NCBI GenBank assembly: GCA_016928995.1
Contig: JAFGJS010000103.1
Coordinates: forward strand, 1-29,525
DNA length: 29,525 nucleotides
Direction: 5' to 3'
From: Candidatus Sumerlaeota bacterium
GTDB taxonomy: Bacteria > Sumerlaeota > Sumerlaeia > JAFGJS01
The position numbers and the translations under genes were made by a program. Under the pieces are notes generated by a model. The model was not told where the DNA came from. It was given only the letters and a program-made list of their open reading frames with translations, and did not search any database. Numbering within the stretch: the stretch's first letter is position 1; each line of letters opens with the position of its first letter. Below are positions 1 through 11,867 of the stretch, in pieces.

Positions 1-130
1 AGGCCTCGCTTGAAAAGGAATGGGAGTCATTTCTCGTCTCCAGATGTACTTTCGCATAACTTTGGGAGCTCCGTCAAGATGCGCCCTCGCAGGCGGTCAG
101 AGAAAAAAATTGACGTTACGCGCTAGCGAC

Positions 131-240
131 ACTTTGGACTGCGGCGGCCATGCCGCTGCCGTAGGCCTGCGGATGGGCGGAAATCTTTGCGAGTGAATTT
201 TCATCATTAAGGCGCAGGCATGGCCTGCGCACTCCAAAGA
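131..240. repeat. Palindromic-ended intergenic element (CTTTGGA type), copy 1
   Basis: Two arms face each other. The left arm at 131-160 reads CTTTGGACTGCGGCGGCCAT and continues into a GCCGC palindrome. The right arm at 211-240 is close to its reverse complement (GCAGGCATGGCCTGCGC then ACTCCAAAG). Each arm is itself a small palindrome, so both arms and the whole unit could fold. The roughly 50-base centre contains no convincing gene. A second unit with the same arms lies at 6767-7011. It resembles a non-autonomous, MITE-like or REP-like element. I see no clear target-site duplication. It lies about 100 bases upstream of the candidate trp leader, and the trp promoter was not identified with confidence. 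Confidence 0.6.
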
Positions 241-340
241 TAGATACCATGCGCAACACCTGCTGATAATTTCGCTGGACAAACGCGATTGGGCGTCATA
301 TGGTCAAGACTCACATCACTAAAAAAAAGCAGCAAAGGTT

Positions 341-421
341 ATGGCTTCTTACGCCGCACATTCCGCCGCCGTTTCAATGAGCGTTCGCCGCTGGTGGTGG
401 GCCTTTGCGCCCTGCCGATAA
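341..421 (+). CDS. trpL: Candidate trp operon leader peptide (three consecutive Trp codons)
   Basis: A 26-codon reading frame starts at ATG 341. An internal in-frame ATG at 377 would give the 14-residue peptide MSVRRWWWAFAPCR, ending at TAA 419-421. The three adjacent TGG codons at 392-400 are the hallmark of trp leader peptides, where ribosome stalling on scarce Trp-tRNA controls the attenuator downstream; WWW runs are known from other bacterial trp leaders. Neither start has an ideal ribosome site: AAAGG at 334-338 is only 2 bases from ATG 341, and nothing obvious precedes 377. The frame lies about 140 bases before trpE and is followed by hairpins and a T-run. The Trp-codon run and position are seen directly; the regulatory role is inferred. 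Confidence 0.72.
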   Translation: MASYAAHSAAVSMSVRRWWWAFAPCR

Positions 422-453
422 TCACATATTACCCTATCGCAGTCTGTAAAGTT

Positions 454-513
454 GCAAAACCGCTGAAAAGCGGAAGTCTTCATCGCGCTTGAGCCAATTT
501 GCGGTTGCTTTTT
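454..513 (+). terminator. Candidate trp attenuator: alternative hairpins ending in a T-run
   Basis: GCGGTTGC at 501-508 can pair with GC/AACCGC at 454-463 (two bulged A). A second inner stem, AAGCG 468-472 with CGCTT 486-490, would extend the structure, and TTTTT follows at 509-513, as in an intrinsic terminator. A competing local hairpin, CCGCT-GAAA-AGCGG at 460-473, uses the same CCGC bases, so the two folds exclude each other. An upstream stem (CTGC-GAT 412-419 with ATCGCAG 436-442, one bulge) overlaps the end of the leader frame and could sense ribosome position. The arrangement fits translational attenuation of trpE transcription. No energies were calculated, so the exact pairing is tentative. 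Confidence 0.55.
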
Positions 514-559: not shown

Positions 560-2044
560 ATGAATGGAAACATCCTGCCCACCCGCGAGGAATTCCGGGA
601 ACTGGCGAAGCAAGGGAATCTGATCCCCGTGCGGCGCGAGATCGTGGCTGATCTGGAGACGCCGGTTTCGGCGTATTTGAAACTGGCGCAAGGTCCGTAC
701 GCCTTTCTGCTGGAGAGCGTGGAGCAGGGCGAGATCGCCGGCCGTTATTCCTTCATGGGCGCGGATCCGGTGATGCTTTTCATGAGCAAGGGGCGCGAGG
801 TGACGCTGCGAACGAACGGCGAAACGAGGACGTTTGAAACCCAGGCCACGGCGCTGGATGAGCTGCGCAAGGTCATGGCGCAATATCAGGAGGTGGACGT
901 GCCGGGGATGCCGCCGTTCAACGGCGGCGCCGTGGGGTATATGGCCTATGACACGGTGCGCGACATCGAGGATTTGCCGTCGGAGAATCCGGACGATCTC
1001 GACATGCCGGACAATTATTTCATGATCGCCGATTCGCTGGTCGCGTTCGATCATGTGAAGCACCGTATGATCCTGATTGCCAATGCGCACGTGGGCGACG
1101 ACGGTCCCGACGCCGCCTATGATCGGGCGTTGGAGCGGATCGAGGCGATGCGGTTGCAGCTGAAACAGCCTTATCAATTACCTCCCCTTTGCAACGGCAA
1201 GCCAGTGGAACCTCTATCCAATTTTACTCAGCCCGATTTTGAAAAGATGGTAGAGCACTGCAAGGAGTACATCCTGGCGGGTGACATCTTCCAGGTGGTG
1301 CCGAGTCAGCGTTGGGCCATCGATTTGCCGTGCGATTCGTTTCATATCTATCGAGCGTTGCGCGCGATCAATCCGTCGCCATACATGTTTTACCTGAAGA
1401 TGGGCGACGTGCAACTGGCCGGCAGCAGTCCGGAGATCCTTTGCCGCTTGAAAGACGGCCGGGTCACCGTGCGGCCCATCGCGGGCACGCGTCCGCGCGG
1501 CGCCACAAAAGAGGAGGATCTTGCGCTGGAAAAGGAACTGCTCGCCGATCCGAAGGAGCGCGCGGAGCATGTGATGCTGATCGACCTCGGGCGCAACGAC
1601 ATCGGCCGCGTGAGCAAGTTCGGCACGGTGAAGGCCGACGAGGTGATGGTGATCGAGCGCTACTCGCACGTGATGCACATCGTTTCGAACGTGACCGGCG
1701 AGATTAACGATGGGCTCGACGCCTTCGACCTGATCAAGGCGACCTTTCCGGCAGGCACGCTCAGCGGCGCGCCGAAAATCCGCGCGATGGAAATCATCGA
1801 GGAGATGGAGCCGGTGCGGCGCGGTCCGTATGGCGGCGCGGTCGGCTATTTCAGTTTCAACGGCAACCTGGACTCGTGCATCATCATTCGCACCGTCGTG
1901 GTCAAGGGCGACAAGGCCTACATTCAGGCTGGCGCGGGGATCGTGGCCGACTCGAATCCTACGCGTGAATTCGAAGAGACATGCAATAAGGCCCGCGGCA
2001 TGCTCCGCGCTGTCGAATGGGCCGCAAGGGGGTTGGACCAATGA
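560..2044 (+). CDS. trpE: Anthranilate synthase component I
   Basis: TrpE converts chorismate and ammonia (supplied by TrpG) to anthranilate, the first committed step of tryptophan synthesis, in the cytoplasm. The 494 residues match the usual length. LLES at residues 50-53 belongs to the Trp-binding allosteric pocket known in TrpE, so feedback inhibition is likely. The chorismate-binding C-terminal domain shows [33 protein letters not shown] and [10 protein letters not shown]. The start is ATG 560, with AAAGGA at 546-551 eight bases upstream. The stop overlaps the trpG start as ATGA at 2041-2044, which indicates translational coupling and equal production of the two subunits. A candidate leader peptide and attenuator lie directly upstream. 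Confidence 0.98.
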
Positions 2045-2604
2045 TTTTTGTGCTCGATAATTACGACTCGTTCACCTATAACCTCGTGCAGTATATGGGC
2101 GAACTCGGCGCCGGGATGTTCGTGCGGCGCAACGATGAAATCAGCGTCGCCGAGGTGGAGGCGCTGAAGCCGGACAAGGTCGTCGTCAGTCCCGGCCCTT
2201 GCACGCCGGACGACGCCGGGATTTCGATGGAGCTGATCGGCGCGCTTGGGCCGAAAGTTCCCACGCTCGGCGTCTGCCTCGGCCATCAAAGTCTGGGCCA
2301 GGTCTTCGGCGGCAAGGTGATCCGCGCGCCGTACCTGATGCACGGCAAGACCTCGCAGATTCACCACAACGGCGCCGGGATCTTCGCGGGCGTGTCGAAT
2401 CCATTCGAGGCTACGCGCTATCATTCGCTGATCGTGGAGCGCGAAAGCCTGCCGGATTGCCTGGAAGTCACGGCGTGGACCGATGACGATATCATCATGG
2501 GCCTGCGCCACAAAGAGCACGCGATTTTCGGGCTGCAATTCCATCCCGAATCGATCCTCACCGGCGAAGGCAAGAACATCTTGAAAAACTTTTTGGAGCT
2601 GTGA
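2041..2604 (+). CDS. trpG: Anthranilate synthase component II, glutamine amidotransferase
   Basis: This class I glutamine amidotransferase hydrolyses glutamine and channels ammonia to TrpE. The 187 residues are a full single domain. They show the N-terminal signature [14 protein letters not shown], the oxyanion segment [11 protein letters not shown], nucleophile Cys79 in GVCLGHQ, and the His168/Glu170 dyad in LQFHPES. The start is ATG 2041, overlapping the trpE stop. A longer in-frame reading from 2017 lies inside trpE and is not supported by homology. It may also serve folate synthesis as PabA, as in some bacteria; the operon position makes the tryptophan role primary. Confidence 0.97.
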
Positions 2605-2611
2605 TTATTTA

Positions 2612-2947
2612 ATGGCTGAAAAAGAGCAGAAAAGCGGACAAGATCGGTTGGCCAAACGCAACAATTGGAAATTGACGCTCGTACTATGCTACTCTTTGCT
2701 GATCTGCAATATTTACATGATATGGCATTGTTATTACACGATACTTGCGATGCATAACGATGACATCCATGAGAAGTCTATTGGGCTGTACGAAAATAGA
2801 CTGATTGCGTCAATAGCGACACTGATTATGCTATGTGGAATAATCGCTTTGGCGCATGTTTTAAGGCATAAAGACAATCTGAAAAAAAAGGATGCAGGCA
2901 TGAATCAAGAGAAACATAAATTGTCCCGAAGGGACAACGGAACGTAG
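2612..2947 (+). CDS. Small two-helix membrane protein of unknown function, AT-rich
   Basis: I do not recognise this 111-residue protein. It has a charged N-terminus (residues 1-19), a hydrophobic helix at about 20-41 (WKLTLVLCYSLLICNIYMIW), a short polar loop and a second helix at about 64-84 (IASIATLIMLCGIIALAHVL), then a Lys-rich tail. It starts 7 bases after the trpG stop, with GGAG at 2594-2597 inside trpG. Composition differs sharply from trp genes: 60 bases at 2701-2760 hold 21 G+C. The last eight residues (from Leu104) are encoded by the left palindromic arm of the following transposase element, so the natural C-terminus may have been replaced or extended by that insertion. It looks horizontally acquired. 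Confidence 0.65.
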   Translation: MAEKEQKSGQDRLAKRNNWKLTLVLCYSLLICNIYMIWHCYYTILAMHNDDIHEKSIGLYENRLIASIATLIMLCGIIALAHVLRHKDNLKKKDAGMNQEKHKLSRRDNGT

Positions 2948-3624
2948 CCGGGGATGAAGCGAGGCCTTCAGGCTGAGCGAGTCCCCGGAAAAGACGAAAC
3001 AAAAAAGAGTCCCGAAGGGACGAAGGAACAACATCGCAGCAACAGGATTATGAAAATGGCGGGCACATTCACCAATTTGAATTACCACCTCGTCTTCAGC
3101 ACAAAACACCGCCGGCCAATGATCTCGGAGGAAATCCGCCCGCGCCTGTACGCATACCTGGGCGGGATTATCAAGGATGACGATGGAGTTCTCTATCAAA
3201 TCGGAGGCATGCCCGACCATGTGCATCTATTGATCCGCTATAAGCCGGCTCGCGACATTTCGCATTTGATGCAGGATTTGAAGAGCCATTCCAGCGGCTG
3301 GGTGCATAAAACATTTTCCGGGCATGATCAGTTTCAATGGCAGGAAGGCTACGGAGCGTTCACGGTCAGCAAGTCGCAATGCGCTCGAGTTCAGAAATAC
3401 ATCGCCAATCAGGAGGGTCATCACCAAAATAGGGATTTCAAATCGGAATTCATTGCGTTGCTGAATGCGCATGGATGCGAGTATGATGAAAAATACATTT
3501 GGGATTGAACGTCATTTCCTGCGTCCCTCCGGGACTTGATGAGACGTCTGATTTTCCGGAGACTCGCTCAGCCTGAGGGCTTCGCTCATCCCCGGCTACA
3601 TTCCTTTGTCCCTTCGGGACAAAA
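2921..3624 (+). mobile_element. RAYT transposase unit with mirrored palindromic arms
   Basis: A Y1 transposase gene is enclosed by two roughly 105-base arms in inverted orientation. The left arm (2921-3027) reads outward to inward: palindrome GTCCCGAAGGGAC (2923-2935), then GTAGCCGGGGATGAAGCGAG and on to GAGTCCCCGG, then a second GTCCCGAAGGGAC (3009-3021). The right arm (3522-3624) mirrors this: GTCCCTCCGGGAC (3523-3535), CCGGAGACTCGCTCAGCC running to CATCCCCGGCTAC, then GTCCCTTCGGGAC (3608-3620). This is the layout of REP sequences flanking their RAYT. It sits inside the trp operon between trpG and trpD. Confidence 0.85.
3050..3508 (+). CDS. REP-associated tyrosine transposase (IS200-like, Y1/HUH family)
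   Basis: This 152-residue HUH endonuclease of the Y1 (TnpA_REP/IS200-like) class is expected to nick and rejoin single-stranded palindromic DNA. The opening FTNLNYHLVFSTKHRRP is typical. The metal-binding HUH motif is His57-Val58-His59 in GMPDHVHLLI, and Tyr117 in ARVQKYIANQEGHH is the probable catalytic tyrosine. Length and motifs look intact, so it may be active. ATG 3050 was chosen because the longer reading from 2954 runs through the left palindromic arm. The flanking mirrored arms are the likely substrates. It lies in the trp operon in the same direction and is probably co-transcribed. Confidence 0.9.
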   Translation: MKMAGTFTNLNYHLVFSTKHRRPMISEEIRPRLYAYLGGIIKDDDGVLYQIGGMPDHVHLLIRYKPARDISHLMQDLKSHSSGWVHKTFSGHDQFQWQEGYGAFTVSKSQCARVQKYIANQEGHHQNRDFKSEFIALLNAHGCEYDEKYIWD

Positions 3625-3743: not shown

Positions 3744-4757
3744 ATGATCATTAAAGACGTGATCGCCAAACTGGCGGACAATGAGGAAATCACGAGCGAG
3801 GAATGCAAGTCAGTCGCTAACGAAATTCTGGGCGGCGAGGCCACGCCGTGCCAGATCGCGGGTTTCATCACGGCACTGCGCTGCCGCGGCGAGCAGATCG
3901 AGCACATCGTGCCGTTCGTCGAGGTGATGCGCGAAAAGATGGAGCCGTTCAACAGCCCGGACGGCGTGATTCTCGACATCGTCGGCACGGGCGGCGATTG
4001 CACGGGCACGTTCAACATCAGCACCACGGCCGCGATCATCGCCGCCGGAGCGGGCGTGCGCGTGGCCAAGCATGGCAATCGCGCCGTGAGCAGCAGCTGC
4101 GGAGCGGCCGACGTGCTCAAGGCTCTCGGCGTCAACACCGAAGCGCCCATCGCCGTGCAGGAAAAATGCCTGGAGGAAATCGGCCTTTGCTTCCTTTTCG
4201 CGCCGGTCTTCCACAGCGCGATGAAGCATGCCGTGCAGCCGCGCAAGGAACTTGGCATCCGCACGATCTTCAACATGATCGGCCCGCTGTGCAATCCGGC
4301 CCAGGCCACCAATTACGTCGTCGGCGTATACAGCAACACGCTGACGGAGACCTTCGCCCGCGTGCTGGGCGAGCTCGGCTGCGAGCGCGCGCTCGTGGTG
4401 CATGGCTCCGACGGTATGGATGAGTTCACGACCACGACCACGACCACCGTGGCCGAGCTCGACGGCGACACTATCGAAACGCATGTCTATGACCCTGGCG
4501 ATTTCGATTTGTCTCCGGCCAATATGCAGGAGCTGCTTGGCGGCGATGCCGAGACCAATGCGGAGATTGTGCGCGGCGTGCTCACCGGACAATGGGGCGA
4601 GACGACCGACATCGCCGTGCTGAACGCGGGCGCCGCGATCTACGCCGCGGGCGCGGCCGAATCGATCCGGGAGGGCATGTCCATCGCCCGCAAGTCCATC
4701 GAGTCCGGCGCCGCGATGGAAAAAATTGAAGCCTTGTCGGAAATGACAAACCAATAA
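3744..4757 (+). CDS. trpD: Anthranilate phosphoribosyltransferase
   Basis: TrpD transfers the phosphoribosyl group of PRPP to anthranilate, the second pathway step. It has 337 residues, the normal length, with an N-terminal helical domain and the nucleoside phosphoribosyltransferase fold. Diagnostic motifs are GTGGD at 81-85 and KHGNR at 109-113 (PRPP and anthranilate binding), followed by LGIRTIFNMIGPLCNPA. The start ATG 3744 has GGAG at 3733-3736, spacing 7. It is unfused, unlike TrpGD forms in some bacteria. It is separated from trpG by over 1.1 kb of inserted cargo, so its expression depends on read-through of the RAYT arms or on an internal promoter. Confidence 0.98.
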   Translation: MIIKDVIAKLADNEEITSEECKSVANEILGGEATPCQIAGFITALRCRGEQIEHIVPFVEVMREKMEPFNSPDGVILDIVGTGGDCTGTFNISTTAAIIAAGAGVRVAKHGNRAVSSSCGAADVLKALGVNTEAPIAVQEKCLEEIGLCFLFAPVFHSAMKHAVQPRKELGIRTIFNMIGPLCNPAQATNYVVGVYSNTLTETFARVLGELGCERALVVHGSDGMDEFTTTTTTTVAELDGDTIETHVYDPGDFDLSPANMQELLGGDAETNAEIVRGVLTGQWGETTDIAVLNAGAAIYAAGAAESIREGMSIARKSIESGAAMEKIEALSEMTNQ

Positions 4758-4763
4758 ATGAAA

Positions 4764-4836
4764 TCACGCTGAGGCGCAGGGGCGCGGAGATGAGAATCAT
4801 TCATTTTTTTCTCTGCGTCTCCGCGCCTCTGCGTGA
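4764..4836. repeat. Inverted repeat (CGCAGAGGCGC type) between trpD and trpC
   Basis: The left arm from 4764 (TCACGCTGAGGCGCAGG then GGCGCGGAGATGAG) is nearly complementary to the right arm at 4811-4836 (CTCTGCGTCTCCGCGCCTCT then GCGTGA), with a short AT-rich loop containing a run of seven T at 4804-4810. It would form a long hairpin in operon mRNA. Units of similar design lie at 8709-8824, 11878-12108 and 13619-13894. The in-frame GTG at 4833 upstream of trpC lies in the right arm and is probably not used. Confidence 0.65.
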
Positions 4837-4859
4837 GATCTCACGTTTGGAAAATTGAT

Positions 4860-5645
4860 ATGACTGTTCTGGATAAAATTGTTGAGTATAAAAAAGAATT
4901 CGTGGCCGCGTGCAAATCAGCCAAGCCTCTCGCCGAGGTGCGGCGCGAGGCCGAGGGGGCGCCGGCGCCGCGCGATATGCTCGCCTCGCTCCGGCAAGGC
5001 GACGGCGTGCACGTGATCGCCGAGTGCAAGAAGGCCTCGCCCAGCAAGGGCGTGATCCGGCCGGACTATGATCCGGCGGCCATCGCCCGGTCGTATGCGA
5101 TGCATGGCGCCGCGGCGATCTCGTGCCTGACCGATGAAAAGTTTTTTCAAGGCTCGCTCGATCATCTGCGCGCCGTGCGGGCGGCCGTGGACATCTCCGT
5201 GATGCGCAAGGAATTCATCATCGACGAGTATCAGATCTACGAAGCGCGCGCCGCCGGAGCGGACGCGGCGTTGCTGATCTGCTCGATCCTCGACGAGGCG
5301 CAGCTGCGTGACTTCACCGCGCTGCTGCGCGAACTCGGCATGCATGCGCTGGTGGAGATTTACGATCCGGCGGAAACGCCGATGGCCCTGCGCCACAACA
5401 CCGGCATCGTCGGTGTGAACAACCGCGATCTGCGCAACTTCGAGGTGGACCTGCGGCACACCGCCACCGTGGCGAAAGAAGTTGGCGACTCTGCGCTGCT
5501 GGTCAGCGAAAGCGGCATCTTCACCCCGGAAGACGTCGCCTACATCCACAGCGCCGGCGCCAAAGCCATCCTCGTTGGCGAAGCTTTCATGCGGGCGGAG
5601 GATCCGGGAATAGAGCTAAAATATTTGATTGAGCAGCTAAGATGA
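4860..5645 (+). CDS. trpC: Indole-3-glycerol phosphate synthase
   Basis: TrpC closes the ring of CdRP to indole-3-glycerol phosphate. The 261-residue TIM barrel contains the catalytic signature AECKKASPSKG (Glu55 onward), Lys117 in MRKEFI, Glu166 in LVEIYDP, GVNNRDL at about 185-191 and SESGI at 216-220. ATG 4860 is chosen over GTG 4833, which lies inside the hairpin repeat and adds nine unconserved residues. The stop overlaps the start of the next gene as ATGA (5642-5645), an unusual coupling because that gene is not part of the pathway. TrpC and TrpF are separate proteins here. Confidence 0.98.
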   Translation: MTVLDKIVEYKKEFVAACKSAKPLAEVRREAEGAPAPRDMLASLRQGDGVHVIAECKKASPSKGVIRPDYDPAAIARSYAMHGAAAISCLTDEKFFQGSLDHLRAVRAAVDISVMRKEFIIDEYQIYEARAAGADAALLICSILDEAQLRDFTALLRELGMHALVEIYDPAETPMALRHNTGIVGVNNRDLRNFEVDLRHTATVAKEVGDSALLVSESGIFTPEDVAYIHSAGAKAILVGEAFMRAEDPGIELKYLIEQLR

Positions 5646-6757
5646 ATAATAAAACATACACAAATTGCTTATTGTGCGGACATCGGCTGGATGGAGCTGC
5701 GGAGTCTATTGAAAATCATAATCTTCCTCTGACATCAGAATGGAGGGGTATGTATATATTTAATTGTCGGGTATGCACAACATACGCATTATCAGAGAAC
5801 GACATCCATAGTGAAATCCTTAATCGTTACACACAACCTCAGAAATCTTTATTAAGCCATATTTTGTGCAAGAGATCAAAAAGCGGAGCGTTAGATAAAA
5901 AAGGATTTTATGTTACTGAAAGTTACATAAATTCAATTCTTAAAAATGAAAAACTTCCTAATCCAGGCGAGCAATATGAAATCTTAATTCATTGGCTAGG
6001 CGATTCGGATAAACCTTTTGGTGAATATTCAGAAGCAAGACATGCAAATATCAAAGCAATCATCGGTGCGCAATCAGATGAGAATATCAAAATTATTCTC
6101 AATGCTTTATTGCGAGACAAATTAATCGAATCAGAGAATATTGATGAGTATAATGGAATAGGAGGAGAAAGTACAAACATCAATCCAGAACTTGCGACAT
6201 ATGGTAGCTTATATCATCTCAGGCTTAGTTTAGAAGGATGGAAAAAGTATCAAGAGTTAAAGAAGGGGCGTACTGAAAGTAAAAGAGTCTTTATGGCAAT
6301 GCCATTCAAAAATGAAAATGATTCCGTTGGCGATCCGTATGGAATCAGGCAAACCTACGAGCGCCTTAAAGATTATGTCAAGCAAACGGGTTTTGAGTTG
6401 ATCAATCCTTTGCTGGATGAAGAAAAGGCCGGGCAAATTATTGAGCGGCTTCAGGTGGAAATTAGAAATTCTAAATTTATGATCGCCGATCTTACGGAAA
6501 GTAATAATGGTGCTTATTGGGAAGCGGGATATGCGAAAGGTTTGGGAAAAGAAGTGATTTATATATGTTCGGAAGAATGGCTGAATGAAGTTGATGAAGA
6601 TGGCAAACCGAAGCATAAGATTCATTTTGATACATTGCAATCATTGACCATACGTTGGAATAAAGATGATTTGCACGCTGTAGGAGAAAGATTGAAGGCT
6701 GTGATTCGTAATACTTTCCCGAGTGAAGCGATACAGGAAGATCCGAAAGATGTGTAA
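5642..6757 (+). CDS. AT-rich zinc-ribbon protein with nucleoside deoxyribosyltransferase-like C-terminal domain
   Basis: The protein has 371 residues and I know no gene name for it. The N-terminus carries a zinc-ribbon-like cysteine set (Cys9, Cys12, Cys42, Cys45). A middle region (about 60-205) is largely helical with no family I recognise. The C-terminal part (about 215-360) resembles the nucleoside 2-deoxyribosyltransferase/TIR-like fold: VFMAMPF at 216-222, then IADLTESNNGAYWEAGYAKG at 281-300 with Glu294 in the usual catalytic place, and HFDTLQ late. Relatives of this fold in immune proteins cleave nucleotides or NAD; activity here is inference. Composition is foreign (21 G+C in 60 bases at 5701-5760), yet its ATG overlaps the trpC stop. 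Candidate antiphage effector. Confidence 0.75.
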   Translation: MNNKTYTNCLLCGHRLDGAAESIENHNLPLTSEWRGMYIFNCRVCTTYALSENDIHSEILNRYTQPQKSLLSHILCKRSKSGALDKKGFYVTESYINSILKNEKLPNPGEQYEILIHWLGDSDKPFGEYSEARHANIKAIIGAQSDENIKIILNALLRDKLIESENIDEYNGIGGESTNINPELATYGSLYHLRLSLEGWKKYQELKKGRTESKRVFMAMPFKNENDSVGDPYGIRQTYERLKDYVKQTGFELINPLLDEEKAGQIIERLQVEIRNSKFMIADLTESNNGAYWEAGYAKGLGKEVIYICSEEWLNEVDEDGKPKHKIHFDTLQSLTIRWNKDDLHAVGERLKAVIRNTFPSEAIQEDPKDV

Positions 6758-7011: not shown

Positions 7012-7060
7012 GGTTTATGGACGTCGATATCAAATTTAATTGGAAAGCAGGATAGTATTT

Positions 7061-8074
7061 ATGTCCCATCGAAAGCATGAGCATCAGTTGCCGCGCGGGT
7101 ATACGAATTGGTTTATTCGCAAGGTGGATGATCTTTCGTTGAGCGGGGTGCTGTGGGGCGGATTGTTGCTATACGTAGCGGTGGCGGTCGGATTTTCGGT
7201 GTTGTTGCAGGTGTGCGCCTGGGCGGGGTGGACGATGATTTATGACGGCGGCGAGCCGGTGACGGGCTTTGGCGGAATTTTGTATTTTAATTTCGTCACG
7301 ATCCTCACGGTGGGTTATGGCGATCTGCATCCGGCTGGTTTGGGGCGCATGCTGGCGACGATTGAGGCGTTGATCGGCGTCGGGCTGTTCGGCGGCATCA
7401 TCGGCGTGGTGGTGCTGAAACTGACGCAGCCGGCGAAGAACTCAATCGTGTTCTCGCATCGGGCGTACTACGCGATTGACGAGGAGCGGTTTTTCATCAT
7501 GTTTCTCAACACGAGCCATTCGCCGCTGGTGAACGCGGAGATTTCATACGTGCTGAAACTCGGCCATCGCAACGAGGTCAAACCCTCCAAGACTACGCCG
7601 TATATCGCCGATTCGGTGTGGATTCTGAACCTGAGCCAGGCTTCGTACAACGACCTGCGCACCATCGAACTTTACGATGACGACGGGATCAAATTCGCGA
7701 TCAGCGGCTCGTACGGCTTCACGAATTTCGCCACGTCCGTGCGCTACGATCTGTGCGATATTCTGGCTGTGCCCAGCCGCGCGCCGTTGGAGCGCGAGTC
7801 GTTGCTCATCCATCCGCGGCTGGGCGATCCTGAATTCGAAAACATCTTCCATTATGAACCGGAAGGCGCGAGACCGTTCGCCGATTACGCGCACAGCATC
7901 GGCGCCAGCGCGAAGAAGGAGCAAACCAACAAGGCGATTGAGCTGACGCGAATCGGGTTGAAAATTCCCGGGCCCGGCGATTCGCCGTTGAAGGATAATC
8001 AAACCGTGATCTTCAAGAGCGAGTCGACGGATCAAAACGAGATGAATTCAATTTTCAATCAAAGGAAGAAATGA
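7061..8074 (+). CDS. KirBac-like potassium channel
   Basis: The 337-residue membrane protein has two transmembrane helices (about 29-55 and 96-121) around a pore loop with the potassium selectivity filter TVGYGD (83-88). The cytoplasmic part (about 125-300) contains FSHRAYYAIDEERFFIMFLN and LVNAEISYVL, which resemble the beta-rich domain of inward-rectifier (KirBac) channels, so it is more likely KirBac-like than MthK-like; there is no RCK domain. ATG 7061 follows AGGA at 7049-7052; a longer reading from TTG 7040 is less likely. It lies in the trp operon, ending 3 bases before trpF, whose ribosome site is inside this gene. A link with tryptophan synthesis is unknown. Confidence 0.85.
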   Translation: MSHRKHEHQLPRGYTNWFIRKVDDLSLSGVLWGGLLLYVAVAVGFSVLLQVCAWAGWTMIYDGGEPVTGFGGILYFNFVTILTVGYGDLHPAGLGRMLATIEALIGVGLFGGIIGVVVLKLTQPAKNSIVFSHRAYYAIDEERFFIMFLNTSHSPLVNAEISYVLKLGHRNEVKPSKTTPYIADSVWILNLSQASYNDLRTIELYDDDGIKFAISGSYGFTNFATSVRYDLCDILAVPSRAPLERESLLIHPRLGDPEFENIFHYEPEGARPFADYAHSIGASAKKEQTNKAIELTRIGLKIPGPGDSPLKDNQTVIFKSESTDQNEMNSIFNQRKK

Positions 8075-8077
8075 TCC

Positions 8078-8710
8078 GTGACTCTAGTGAAAATATGCGG
8101 CTTGACGAACGCCGGCGACGCGATGGCGGCGGTGGAGGCAGGGGCGGATTATCTGGGATTTGTGTTCGCGCGGTCGCCGCGTCAGGTGATGGCGCCGCAG
8201 GTGCGGCGGATCATGGAGCGCGTGCGCACGCTGGGACGGCAGGTGACGACGTTCGGCGTGTTTTTGCCCTTGCCGGTGGATGAAATCGGCGCGATCCTCC
8301 ACGAATCGCTGCTGGATGGCGCGCAATTGCACGGCTGGGGTTCGCAGGAGGAGATCGACGCGATCCGGCGCAAGGGCTTTCAGGTTTCGCGCGCGTTCCG
8401 CATCCGCGACGGGCAGTCGGTGGAGGATCTCGCGCGGCACGATGCGGACTACTATCTGTGCGACGCGTGGCATCCGACCGAGGCCGGCGGCACGGGCGAC
8501 GCGTTCGATCATGCGTTGATCCGCGAAGAGGCGCGGCAGCGGCGCTTGATTCTGGCGGGCGGCCTGACGCCGGAGAACGTGGCGGAGGCGATCCGCGAAG
8601 TGCGGCCGTTCGCCGTGGACGTTTCCAGCGGCGTGGAAGGCGAGCGCAAAGGCCAGAAGGATTTGAGCAAGATACAGAGGTTTATTGAAGAGGCGAGGAA
8701 AACGATTTAA
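8078..8710 (+). CDS. trpF: Phosphoribosylanthranilate isomerase
   Basis: TrpF isomerises N-(5-phosphoribosyl)anthranilate to CdRP. The 210-residue TIM barrel shows the N-terminal VKICGLTNAGDA with catalytic Cys7, GADYLGFVF, and AVDVSSGVE with the following GQKD near the C-terminus (phosphate binding). The start is GTG 8078, with AAAGGA at 8061-8066 inside the preceding channel gene, so translation is probably coupled to it. Its TAA stop (8708-8710) lies at the very edge of an inverted repeat. Confidence 0.97.
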   Translation: MTLVKICGLTNAGDAMAAVEAGADYLGFVFARSPRQVMAPQVRRIMERVRTLGRQVTTFGVFLPLPVDEIGAILHESLLDGAQLHGWGSQEEIDAIRRKGFQVSRAFRIRDGQSVEDLARHDADYYLCDAWHPTEAGGTGDAFDHALIREEARQRRLILAGGLTPENVAEAIREVRPFAVDVSSGVEGERKGQKDLSKIQRFIEEARKTI

Positions 8711-8824: not shown

Positions 8825-8847
8825 AAAATAAATCATGGAGCATGGCG

Positions 8848-10062
8848 ATGACATTGGTTCCTGGCGCACAACGCCCTGATACGACAGGGCATTATGGGGA
8901 ATTCGGCGGACGGTTCGTGCCGGAGACGCTGTTTCAGGCGTTGATCGACCTGGAGCGCGAGTATAAGGCGATGGCGGACGACGCGGATTTTCAAGAGGAG
9001 CTGACGGCGCTGCTGACACAATACGTGGGGCGTCCGACGCCGCTCTATTTCGCGCGGCGGTTGAGCGAGACGGCGGGCAACGGCATGCGGCTGTACCTGA
9101 AGCGCGAGGACCTGTGCCACACCGGCGCGCATAAGATCAATAACACGCTGGGGCAGGCGCTGCTGGCGAAGCGCCTGGGCAAGCCGCGCGTGATCGCGGA
9201 GACCGGCGCCGGTCAGCATGGCGTGGCCACGGCGACGGCGTGCGCGCTACTGGGGCTGGAGTGCGAGGTGTTCATGGGCGTGGAGGACATCGAGCGGCAA
9301 AAGCCGAACGTGCTGCGGATGCAGTTGCTCGGCGCGAAGGTGACGCCGGTGACGTCCGGTACGAGCACGCTGAAGGACGCGACGAACGAGGCGCTGCGCG
9401 ACTGGATGGCGCGCGTGGATGACACGCATTACATCATTGGTTCGGTGGTCGGGCCGCATCCCTTTCCGATGATCGTGCGCGATTTTCAGTCAGTGATCGG
9501 GCGCGAGGCTCGCGCGCAGATTCTCGAAGCGGAGGGGCGGCTGCCGGATGCGCTGATCGCCTGCGTGGGCGGCGGCAGCAACTCGCTGGGGCTGTTCCAT
9601 CCGTTTTACGACGACGCGGATGTGAAATTCTTCGGCGTCGAGGCGGAGGGCGAGGGGCTGCACACAGGCAAGCACGCCGTGGCCATCGGCGACGCCAGCA
9701 GTCAGCCTGGCGTGTTCCACGGTTCGCGCAGCTTCGTGCTGCAGACCGACGACGGGCAGATCGTGCCAGCGCATTCGATTTCCGCCGGGCTGGATTATCC
9801 CGGCGTCGGGCCGGAGCATTCGTTCTACGCACGCACGGGGCGTGCGCGATACATGCCGGTGACTGATGAGCGGGCGCTGATCGGCGTTAAGGAGACCTGT
9901 GTGCAGGAGGGGATCATTCCCGCACTGGAGACGGCGCATGCGCTGTATTACGCCGTGCATGAATTGCCGAAGCAACTGCCGCCGGATTCCGTCGTGATCC
10001 TCTGTTTTTCCGGCCGCGGAGACAAAGACGTGCAGACGTACCAGCGGTGTTTTCAGAAATAG
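8848..10062 (+). CDS. trpB: Tryptophan synthase beta chain
   Basis: TrpB condenses indole with serine using pyridoxal phosphate, in an alpha2-beta2 complex with TrpA. About 404 residues, the standard TrpB1 length. Motifs: [15 protein letters not shown] at the N-terminus, the PLP lysine Lys96 in [17 protein letters not shown], phosphate-binding GGGSNS, and CFSGRGDKD at the C-terminus. Two starts are possible: ATG 8842 and ATG 8848. GGAG at 8837-8840 is one base from the first and seven from the second, so 8848 is preferred. The ribosome site follows immediately after the hairpin repeat. Confidence 0.98.
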
Positions 10063-10109: not shown

Positions 10110-10991
10110 ATGTCGTTACAAAATTTTAAGTTTCAATCGTTTCAAGCAGGAATCGCGTTGATTGCGATGATGTTTTGTCTGAGCGCCACATACCGGACGG
10201 CCGTGGCTGATGAGGTGGAAGTGGCGATTGAGGGAGGAGACCTCATCACCACGACTACGATCAAGAGCACGCCTAAAGTAATGCATTACACGCTCGACAC
10301 CAGCGCCACCTTGGCTACAACGCCGACCTTGGTCGTGCATGATCCCATCCGGATTCGCGCGGTGTTCAACAAGGATAACGCGAATTTCATCACGCACGAA
10401 ATTTCCCGCTTCGGCGCCTTTCATGTGTTTTGCGACGCAGAAGTGGCGAAACATTGGGTCAGCCTGAAAGCGCCGGATGTCTCGCTGGAGGAGGCGATTC
10501 AATGCGTGGTTGACCAGGGTCAGGGGGAGTGGGTGGCGTATAACTGGCGCTATAAAAATACGTATATGATTTCGCACAAGGATAATTTCAAGAAGCTGAT
10601 GGCGTTTGATTGCCTGGTTAATCTTGATCCCGATCCGATCGTCACCAAGGCGCGCATCGTGGATATCAACGTGATTCTGGCGGAGCTCAGCAAGCAGTGC
10701 GCCGAAGTGGGAATGCCGTATGAAATCACATACCAGGGAAACGGCGGCGATCCGCCGAAACCGGCGCTGTTTCTCCGCAGCGCGCCGTTGTCATCGGCGT
10801 TATGCCGTTTGGCGCTGTTGGAAGATTTGACCGTCAAGCAGATCGAAGGGACGAATAAAATCATCCTCATTCAAAACAAGGGCGATGAGATGTATTCCTC
10901 AGGCAATGGCGGCGCCGCCGAAGAGGAACCCGATGTGAAAGAGGAAGGCAAGACGCAAGCTGGCGACGAAGCGACGACACAGGTTCAGTAG
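10110..10991 (+). CDS. Secreted protein of unknown function between trpB and trpA
   Basis: The 293-residue protein begins with a signal peptide (hydrophobic GIALIAMMFCLSA, probable cleavage after Ala33 in TAVA-DE), so it is exported. A segment around residues 85-155 (RFGAFHVFCDAEVAKHWVSL then KAPDVSLEEAIQCVVDQ) has the look of secretin/TonB short N-terminal (STN-like) modules, and a second similar segment may lie around 185-250; this is a weak resemblance. The C-terminus is acidic and low-complexity. GGAG at 10101-10104, 5 bases before ATG, is a strong ribosome site. Composition resembles the surrounding genes. I do not recognise the family, and no role in tryptophan synthesis is evident. Confidence 0.75.
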   Translation: MSLQNFKFQSFQAGIALIAMMFCLSATYRTAVADEVEVAIEGGDLITTTTIKSTPKVMHYTLDTSATLATTPTLVVHDPIRIRAVFNKDNANFITHEISRFGAFHVFCDAEVAKHWVSLKAPDVSLEEAIQCVVDQGQGEWVAYNWRYKNTYMISHKDNFKKLMAFDCLVNLDPDPIVTKARIVDINVILAELSKQCAEVGMPYEITYQGNGGDPPKPALFLRSAPLSSALCRLALLEDLTVKQIEGTNKIILIQNKGDEMYSSGNGGAAEEEPDVKEEGKTQAGDEATTQVQ

Positions 10992-11060
10992 TGATTCGCG
11001 GCGAAGATCGCACACTGAAAAAAACACAATGCGCTGTTTAGCGCGATGAAGGAGAAGAGC

Positions 11061-11867
11061 GTGAACCGGATCGAGCGAATGTTTCAGGAAAAGCGCCAGG
11101 CCGGCCAGAAGGCGCTGGTGCTGTTTATCACGGCGGGATATCCCAGCCTGGATTTCACGAAGGCGCTGCTGCCGAAGCTCGCCGAATGGGGCTGCGACCT
11201 GGTGGAGCTGGGCGTTCCGTTCAGCGATCCCATCGCCGACGGTCCGACGATCCAGTATTCATCCAACGAGGCGCTCAAGGCCGGCGTGACGGTGCGGAAA
11301 ATTCTGTCAACGATTCCACCAGTTCGTGAGCGGAGCGAGGTTCCGGTCATTCTCTTCAGCGCGGTCAATCCGTTGTTGAAATACGGCCTTGAGGCTATCG
11401 CCGACGATGCGAAAGCGGCGGGCGCGGACGGCTTCCTGATTCCCGATGTGCCGTTGGAGGAGGGGGACGAGGCCCGGTCGATCTGCTCAGAGCGCGAGCT
11501 GTCGCTGGTGTTTCTGACAGCGCCCACTTCGCCGGTGGAGCGCTTGCGCCGCATCGCCGAAGCCAGCACGGGATTCATCTACTACATCGCGCAACGCGGC
11601 GTGACAGGCGCGCGGACGGAGATCGCCGCGGATCTGGCGGACAAGATCGGCGAGTTGCGCGGCGTGACGGACAAGCCGGTCGCCGTCGGTTTCGGCGTGA
11701 GCACGCCCGAGCATGCGCGGCAAGTGGCGCAAGTGGCTGACGGCGTGATCGTGGGCAGCGCCTTGATCAACAAAATCCGCGAGGCCATCGCCAACGGCGC
11801 GGATTCCGACGAAGCGATCCTGGCTCATTTGGAGCCTTATGTCAGGTCGTTGGCTGAGGCGCTGTAA
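11061..11867 (+). CDS. trpA: Tryptophan synthase alpha chain
   Basis: TrpA cleaves indole-3-glycerol phosphate to indole and glyceraldehyde 3-phosphate and passes indole to TrpB. About 268 residues, normal length. GTG 11061 is chosen because AAGGAG (11049-11054) lies 6 bases upstream and because catalytic Glu49 (VELGVPFSDP) and Asp60 (IADGPTIQ) then fall at the same numbers as in the E. coli enzyme; an ATG at 11046 adds five residues. Phosphate-binding GFGVS and GSALI are present near the C-terminus. This is the last gene of the tryptophan operon. Confidence 0.97.
   Translation: MNRIERMFQEKRQAGQKALVLFITAGYPSLDFTKALLPKLAEWGCDLVELGVPFSDPIADGPTIQYSSNEALKAGVTVRKILSTIPPVRERSEVPVILFSAVNPLLKYGLEAIADDAKAAGADGFLIPDVPLEEGDEARSICSERELSLVFLTAPTSPVERLRRIAEASTGFIYYIAQRGVTGARTEIAADLADKIGELRGVTDKPVAVGFGVSTPEHARQVAQVADGVIVGSALINKIREAIANGADSDEAILAHLEPYVRSLAEAL

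What the first reader, a model, noticed from the sequence alone, without database searches (positions are those of the whole stretch)
341..513. trp attenuator with a WWW leader peptide
A short frame with three consecutive Trp codons (392-400) precedes trpE. After it come mutually exclusive hairpins: CCGCT-GAAA-AGCGG at 460-473, versus AACCGC 458-463 with GCGGTT 501-506 followed by TTTTT. This is the logic of translation-coupled attenuation, here in a lineage that may not be well described. Weak points: the ribosome site is poor and the pairing was not energy-scored.
Basis: partly seen in the sequence, partly recalled or inferred. Interest (0 to 1): 0.7.

Follow-up and report, generated by a model that had tools for sequence, protein, structure and literature searches.

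The report
Probable tryptophan-sensing leader before trp operon
A short reading frame with three tryptophan codons in a row stands before a complete tryptophan operon in a bacterium of the little-studied phylum Sumerlaeota; it probably senses tryptophan supply as in classical attenuation, but the RNA hairpins first named are not the ones that would respond to the ribosome, and no strong terminator is present.

Summary
In detail: a 26-codon (or 14-codon) frame with TGGTGGTGG at 392-400 precedes trpE, and the trp genes run in one direction to 11867. TGGTGGTGG occurs only 44 times in the 4.55 Mb genome, so a sense-strand copy here is unlikely by chance (about 0.001). W-dense leader peptides also precede trpE in two other genera of the class (4 of 35 loci, window included, against 0.12 expected), though not in most relatives, many of which have hisI-trpE instead.

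The named switch fails. The GAAA hairpin (460-473) lies 38 nt past the stop codon and forms whatever the ribosome does; the 458-463/501-506 terminator is not favoured when the leader is fully translated. Ribosome-masked folding shows another pair that does respond: hairpin C (405-420/435-449) when the ribosome stalls on Trp, and 11-bp stem A (439-450/498-508), ending at TTTTT, when it reaches the stop codon (P of A 0.01 versus 0.88). Stem A is much weaker than the terminators of five comparison leaders. The leader has no good ribosome site, and no family-level relative was held, so conservation of C and A is untested.

Verdict: probable new member of a known kind; mechanism unproven.

The parts
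276..304 (+). possible sigma-70-type promoter, TGGACA-17-TATGGT (9 of 12)
   Evidence: Consensus scan only; 2 promoter-like sites in 700 nt against 0.5 in shuffles; not evidence of function
341..421 (+). leader peptide frame, 26 aa from ATG 341 (MASYAAHSAAVSMSVRRWWWAFAPCR) or 14 aa from ATG 378; stop TAA 419-421
   Evidence: Sequence, ORF scan. AAAGG lies only 2 nt before ATG 341; no Shine-Dalgarno-like site before ATG 378
392..400 (+). three consecutive Trp codons TGGTGGTGG
405..449 (+). hairpin C (candidate antiterminator): 405-409/445-449 and 412-420/435-442, its 5' arm in the leader tail and stop codon
   Evidence: P of the core about 0.9 with ribosome at the Trp codons, excluded with ribosome at the stop codon
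439..508 (+). stem A (candidate terminator): 439-450 pairs with 498-508, 11 pairs, directly before TTTTT
   Evidence: P 0.01 stalled at first Trp codon, 0.88 at stop codon; 19 of 1000 shuffles show a contrast of 0.8 or more, 0 of 1000 with 10 or more pairs
460..473 (+).
   Evidence: P 0.02 with ribosome at stop codon; weak, 37-nt loop
509..513 (+). T tract
   Evidence: sequence
560..2044 (+). trpE, anthranilate synthase component I
   Evidence: TIGR00564 588 bits, above cut-off
2041..2604 (+). trpG, anthranilate synthase component II
   Evidence: TIGR00566 262 bits
3744..4757 (+). trpD
   Evidence: TIGR01245 394 bits
4833..5645 (+). trpC
   Evidence: NF001377 315 bits
8078..8710 (+). trpF
   Evidence: NCBIfam phosphoribosylanthranilate isomerase models, best 194 bits, below its cut-off of 215
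8842..10062 (+). trpB
   Evidence: TIGR00263 583 bits
11046..11867 (+). trpA
   Evidence: TIGR00262 258 bits

Best explanation
The element is a Trp-sensing leader peptide that controls the downstream trp operon (trpE-G-D-C-F-B-A, with extra genes between). When charged tRNA-Trp is scarce, the ribosome stalls on the Trp codons at 392-400. Hairpin C (405-420/435-449) then forms and keeps 439-449 from pairing, so RNA polymerase reads through into trpE. When Trp is plentiful, the ribosome reaches the stop codon at 419-421 and covers the 5' arm of C. The freed 439-450 pairs with 498-508 to give stem A, which ends at TTTTT 509-513, and transcription stops early. Shown: the frame, the Trp run and its improbability, W-rich leaders before trpE in other genera of the class, and the predicted ribosome-dependent C/A exchange. 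Inferred: that the frame is translated, that the transcript starts upstream of it, that stem A terminates transcription, and that Trp controls any of this. My confidence that the leader peptide is a real Trp sensor is about 0.65; that the C/A switch is its output, about 0.3.
For: TGGTGGTGG is rare in the genome (44 copies on both strands of 4.55 Mb) and sits in a short frame on the correct strand before a complete trp operon. Frames with 3 or more W in 6 residues precede trpE in 4 of 35 class loci, against 0.12 expected from shuffles and 0 on the antisense strand. In genus g27 both members end WWRW-x-A-stop with different stop codons (TAA, TGA) while the middle of the peptide diverges; in genus g31 the peptides end WRRWRW-stop and WRLWRC-stop. 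The C/A exchange is predicted under four energy models for a stall at the first Trp codon (A 0.01-0.06 stalled versus 0.55-0.95 at stop, 37 C) and for footprints +9 to +19 at that codon. It is rare in shuffles (19 of 1000, or 0 of 1000 with 10 or more pairs). As in the deltaproteobacterial comparison leaders, the antiterminator's 5' arm lies in the leader tail between the Trp codons and the stop. No TrpR was found in 41 genomes of the class and outgroup, and the genome's only detected T-box lies before leuA.
Against: Stem A is a poor terminator: 11 pairs of which 3 are G-U, a 47-nt loop holding another hairpin, and an energy gain of only -6.1 kcal/mol. In the comparison leaders the terminator dominates in every ribosome state (P 0.95-1.0). 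The consensus scan finds no terminator in 1-700, and folding z-scores are ordinary. The leader start has no convincing ribosome site. Most class relatives lack such a leader, and no genome of the same order or family was held, so conservation of the window's own peptide and helices is untested. Stem A was picked after looking at the folds. Stalling at the third Trp codon gives a mixed result for some energy models and for longer footprints.
Confidence: 0.5

Rival explanations
1. The attenuator works exactly: the GAAA hairpin 460-473 is the antiterminator and 458-463/501-506 is the terminator, chosen by ribosome stalling.
For: Both helices exist at the stated places and exclude each other.
Against: The 5' arm is paired alike before the 3' arm is made in all ribosome states (0.60 stalled, 0.54 at stop; E. 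coli control 0.62 to 0.01-0.05). The terminator is less probable at the stop codon than when stalled. The arrangement is fairly common in shuffles (52 of 2000) and in the window (22 of 426 slices).
Confidence: 0.08
2. The leader peptide senses Trp, but the output is not an intrinsic terminator: Rho-dependent termination (as in E. coli tna) or control of trpE translation.
For: No strong intrinsic terminator is present. Two class relatives of genus g27 have WWRW leaders followed by a C-rich, G-poor, nearly unstructured spacer (C 41-44%, G 9-13%). [quoted passage not shown]
Against: The window's own spacer is not C-rich (C 25%, G 21%). Pairing of the trpE start region does not change with ribosome position (0.48-0.49 in all states).
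Confidence: 0.17
3. Chance: the Trp run and the hairpins are coincidental and trpE is not controlled here by a leader peptide.
For: Poor ribosome site, ordinary folding energies, and most relatives lack the leader. The site was chosen by a reader scanning for striking features.
Against: Chance probability about 0.001 for the Trp run, none in 300 shuffles; W-dense leaders recur before trpE in two other genera of the class.
Confidence: 0.25

Closest known systems
E. coli trpL attenuator (NC_000913.3, locus L135; Rfam RF00513 Trp_leader)
   Same: Short leader peptide with consecutive Trp codons before trpE; downstream RNA helices whose choice depends on ribosome position.
   Different: Not detected by RF00513. 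E. coli has two Trp codons, four segments and a compact strong terminator; here the candidate terminator is weak with a 47-nt loop, and without translation the model predicts read-through rather than termination.
trp leaders of Syntrophobacterales and other Deltaproteobacteria found here (L026, L037, L072, L068) and of L133 (phylum not known)
   Same: WWW or WWWW leader before trpE; in the four deltaproteobacterial leaders the antiterminator's 5' arm lies in the leader tail between the Trp codons and the stop.
   Different: They have strong short-loop terminators with long T runs that dominate in all states.
trp attenuators of Corynebacterium and Streptomyces (PMC1262725)
   Same: Leader peptides with double or triple UGG codons before the trp operon.
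   Different: [quoted passage not shown] here no such strong terminator and no conserved set to test.
Leader peptides without obvious terminator (Mycobacterium cys operons, PMC1262725; E. coli tnaC)
   Same: Cognate-codon leader frame without a convincing intrinsic terminator.
   Different: The window has a T tract and no C-rich Rho-like spacer; the g27 relatives L128 and L131 fit this type better.

Membership tests
ribosome-mediated trp attenuator | short leader frame with tandem Trp codons upstream of a trp biosynthetic gene on the same strand | tested here: met
ribosome-mediated trp attenuator | leader frame is translated (usable ribosome site or leaderless start) | tested here: inconclusive
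   AAAGG only 2 nt before ATG 341, none before ATG 378; transcript start unknown
ribosome-mediated trp attenuator | strong intrinsic terminator between leader and first gene | tested here: not met
   No terminator in the scan; stem A weak compared with comparison leaders, P 0.95-1.0 in every state
ribosome-mediated trp attenuator | antiterminator that competes with the terminator and depends on ribosome position | tested here: inconclusive
Helices C and A: predicted dependence in the right direction, found after inspection of folds
ribosome-mediated trp attenuator | conservation of leader peptide and helices in close relatives | not testable with these tools
   No genome of the same order or family held; nearest are same class. 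Other class genera have W-rich leaders of different sequence
ribosome-mediated trp attenuator | expression of trpE rises on Trp starvation, dependent on the Trp codons | not testable with these tools
   needs an experiment
Rfam RF00513 Trp_leader | match to the covariance model | tested here: not met
   the E. coli control matches
T-box | match to RF00230 upstream of trpE | tested here: not met
   Only T-box detected in this genome is before leuA

The most novel reading that the evidence does not exclude
Sumerlaeia control trp operons with leader peptides that arose or were reshaped more than once. The window would use a three-segment switch whose terminator encloses another hairpin and which reads through when untranslated, and genus g27 would use a Trp leader coupled to Rho-dependent termination.
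Probability: 0.15. Interest if true: 0.55.

Novelty: new member of a known kind. Interest (0 to 1): 0.35.

Why it matters
If true, it extends ribosome-mediated control of tryptophan synthesis to a candidate phylum for which I found no such report in the library searched. It also suggests that leader peptides differ between genera of one class while other genera keep trpE next to hisI. It is a modest extension of a well-known principle, not a new one.

Tried and rejected
Rfam scan of the window at gathering score (no match) and permissive scan of 1-700 (two chance-level matches). RF00513 in 41 genomes (none). TrpR in 41 genomes (none). T-box as the trp regulator: the genome's only detected T-box precedes leuA, so rejected for trp here. 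Control of trpE translation by sequestering its start region: pairing is 0.48-0.49 in all ribosome states, so no support. Rho-like spacer in the window: composition is not C-rich. Equilibrium contrast between ribosome states as a general test of attenuators: it fails on the comparison leaders because their terminators dominate in every state, so it cannot be used alone. A first attempt used pair lists for stem A and hairpin C that were one base off; one search replaces it. Papers naming Sumerlaeota and tryptophan together: 11, ten listed, none on trp regulation by title or abstract.

Full report
Place. The window is a contig of a 4.55 Mb genome in 161 contigs. The nearest held genomes are of the same class only. 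One of them has its trpE on a contig of 243318 bases, the same length and place as JASGMJ010000002.1, titled Candidatus Sumerlaeota, so the window most likely belongs to the class Candidatus Sumerlaeia. Genes after the leader are trpE 560-2044, trpG 2041-2604, trpD 3744-4757, trpC 4833-5645, trpF 8078-8710, trpB 8842-10062 and trpA 11046-11867, all on the + strand, with an IS200-like transposase and several other frames between them.

Observation. TGGTGGTGG is rare: 44 copies on both strands of the genome, or about 0.001 expected in the 220-300 nt before trpE on its strand. In the scan for short frames with 3 or more W within 6 residues, none of 300 shuffles of this leader scored, and over 35 class loci 4 scored against 0.12 expected, with 0 on the antisense strand. 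The four are the window, L091 (genus g31), and L128 and L131 (genus g27). Leaving out the window, which was chosen for this feature, 3 remain against about 0.12, from two genera.

Relatives. Many class relatives have hisI 13 to 132 nt upstream of trpE, with no room for or sign of a leader. In g27 the peptides MELQMAASSAIARLGLSRPWWRWLA and MELRKMPSFVCLGNVPAGAWWRWRA share start and end but not the middle, and use different stop codons. In g31 the ends are GWRRWRW and GWRLWRC, again with different stop codons. So W-rich leaders occur before trpE in this class, but no relative is close enough to align with the window's own leader.

Structures. Overall folding is no better than shuffles. I modelled the ribosome by removing everything up to 13 nt past the first base of the codon in the A site.

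A different exchange appears. Hairpin C joins the leader tail and stop codon (405-420) to 435-449. Stem A joins 439-450 to 498-508 and ends directly at TTTTT. C forms when the ribosome is on the Trp codons or absent; A forms once it is at the stop codon (A 0.01 and 0.88). The direction holds for four energy models and three temperatures at the first Trp codon, less cleanly at the third, and A at the stop codon falls to 0.26 in one model at 50 C. Among 1000 shuffles of 422-508, 19 reach a contrast of 0.8 and none does so with 10 or more pairs. I found A by looking at the folds, so these rates flatter it. In the deltaproteobacterial comparison leaders the antiterminator likewise uses the leader tail.

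Weak points. Stem A is a weak terminator with a 47-nt loop and G-U pairs; five other leaders with textbook terminators (L026, L037, L072, L068, L133) keep theirs at 0.95-1.0 in every state. The consensus scan found no terminator in 1-700, and its promoter-like sites are not evidence of a promoter. The leader lacks a convincing ribosome site.

Other regulators. No TrpR was found in this genome or 40 others. The class carries about one detectable T-box per genome; here it precedes leuA. RF00513 does not match. This leaves the leader peptide as the only visible candidate for Trp control in cis, but absence of other regulators is weak evidence.

Known kinds. Leader peptides with double or triple UGG codons and classical terminators are described for Corynebacterium and Streptomyces trp operons, and leader peptides without obvious terminators for Mycobacterium cys operons, where Rho was proposed (PMC1262725). 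The window works like a trp attenuator in its leader peptide and perhaps in its switch, but it does not meet the terminator criterion. I therefore call it a probable Trp-sensing leader, not an established attenuator.

Noticed in passing
window 1-87: These bases recur at 85-100% identity, mostly at or near the ends of about 15 other contigs of the genome, so the contig was cut at a repeat, probably the end of a mobile element.
   Followed up: partly
window 105-258: A dispersed repeat with inverted-repeat character, about 70-77% identical to many copies across the genome, with a core at 209-240 found exactly in several places. It sits between the contig end and the leader.
   Followed up: partly
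window 2612-3508: An IS200-like transposase (PF01797, 111 bits) and an unassigned 111-aa frame lie inside the trp operon between trpG and trpD.
   Followed up: partly
window 5642-6757, 7040-8074, 10110-10991: Three frames within the trp operon gave no NCBIfam match; the first has a weak nucleoside 2-deoxyribosyltransferase match in Pfam.
   Followed up: no
L128, L131 (genus g27), about 80-160 nt before trpE: Conserved WWRW leader peptides followed by a C-rich, G-poor spacer (C 41-44%, G 9-13%) with almost no structure: candidate Rho-dependent Trp attenuation.
   Followed up: partly
L091, L098 (genus g31), about 90-190 nt before trpE: Shared leader peptides ending GWRRWRW and GWRLWRC, followed by two GC-rich hairpins without a T run.
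   Followed up: partly
L130 (G033:C5:27862-28110): A T-box just upstream of a divergent trpE in one class member, unlike the leuA T-box of the window's genome.
   Followed up: no
L026, L037, L072, upstream of trpE: Syntrophobacterales-type trp leaders with WWW or WWWW and a shared GFVH motif, followed by two consecutive terminator-like hairpins rather than one. Rfam at gathering score did not match them.
   Followed up: no
G000:C13:5357-5600 (L140:1058-1301): The only T-box detected in the window's genome lies upstream of leuA.
   Followed up: yes
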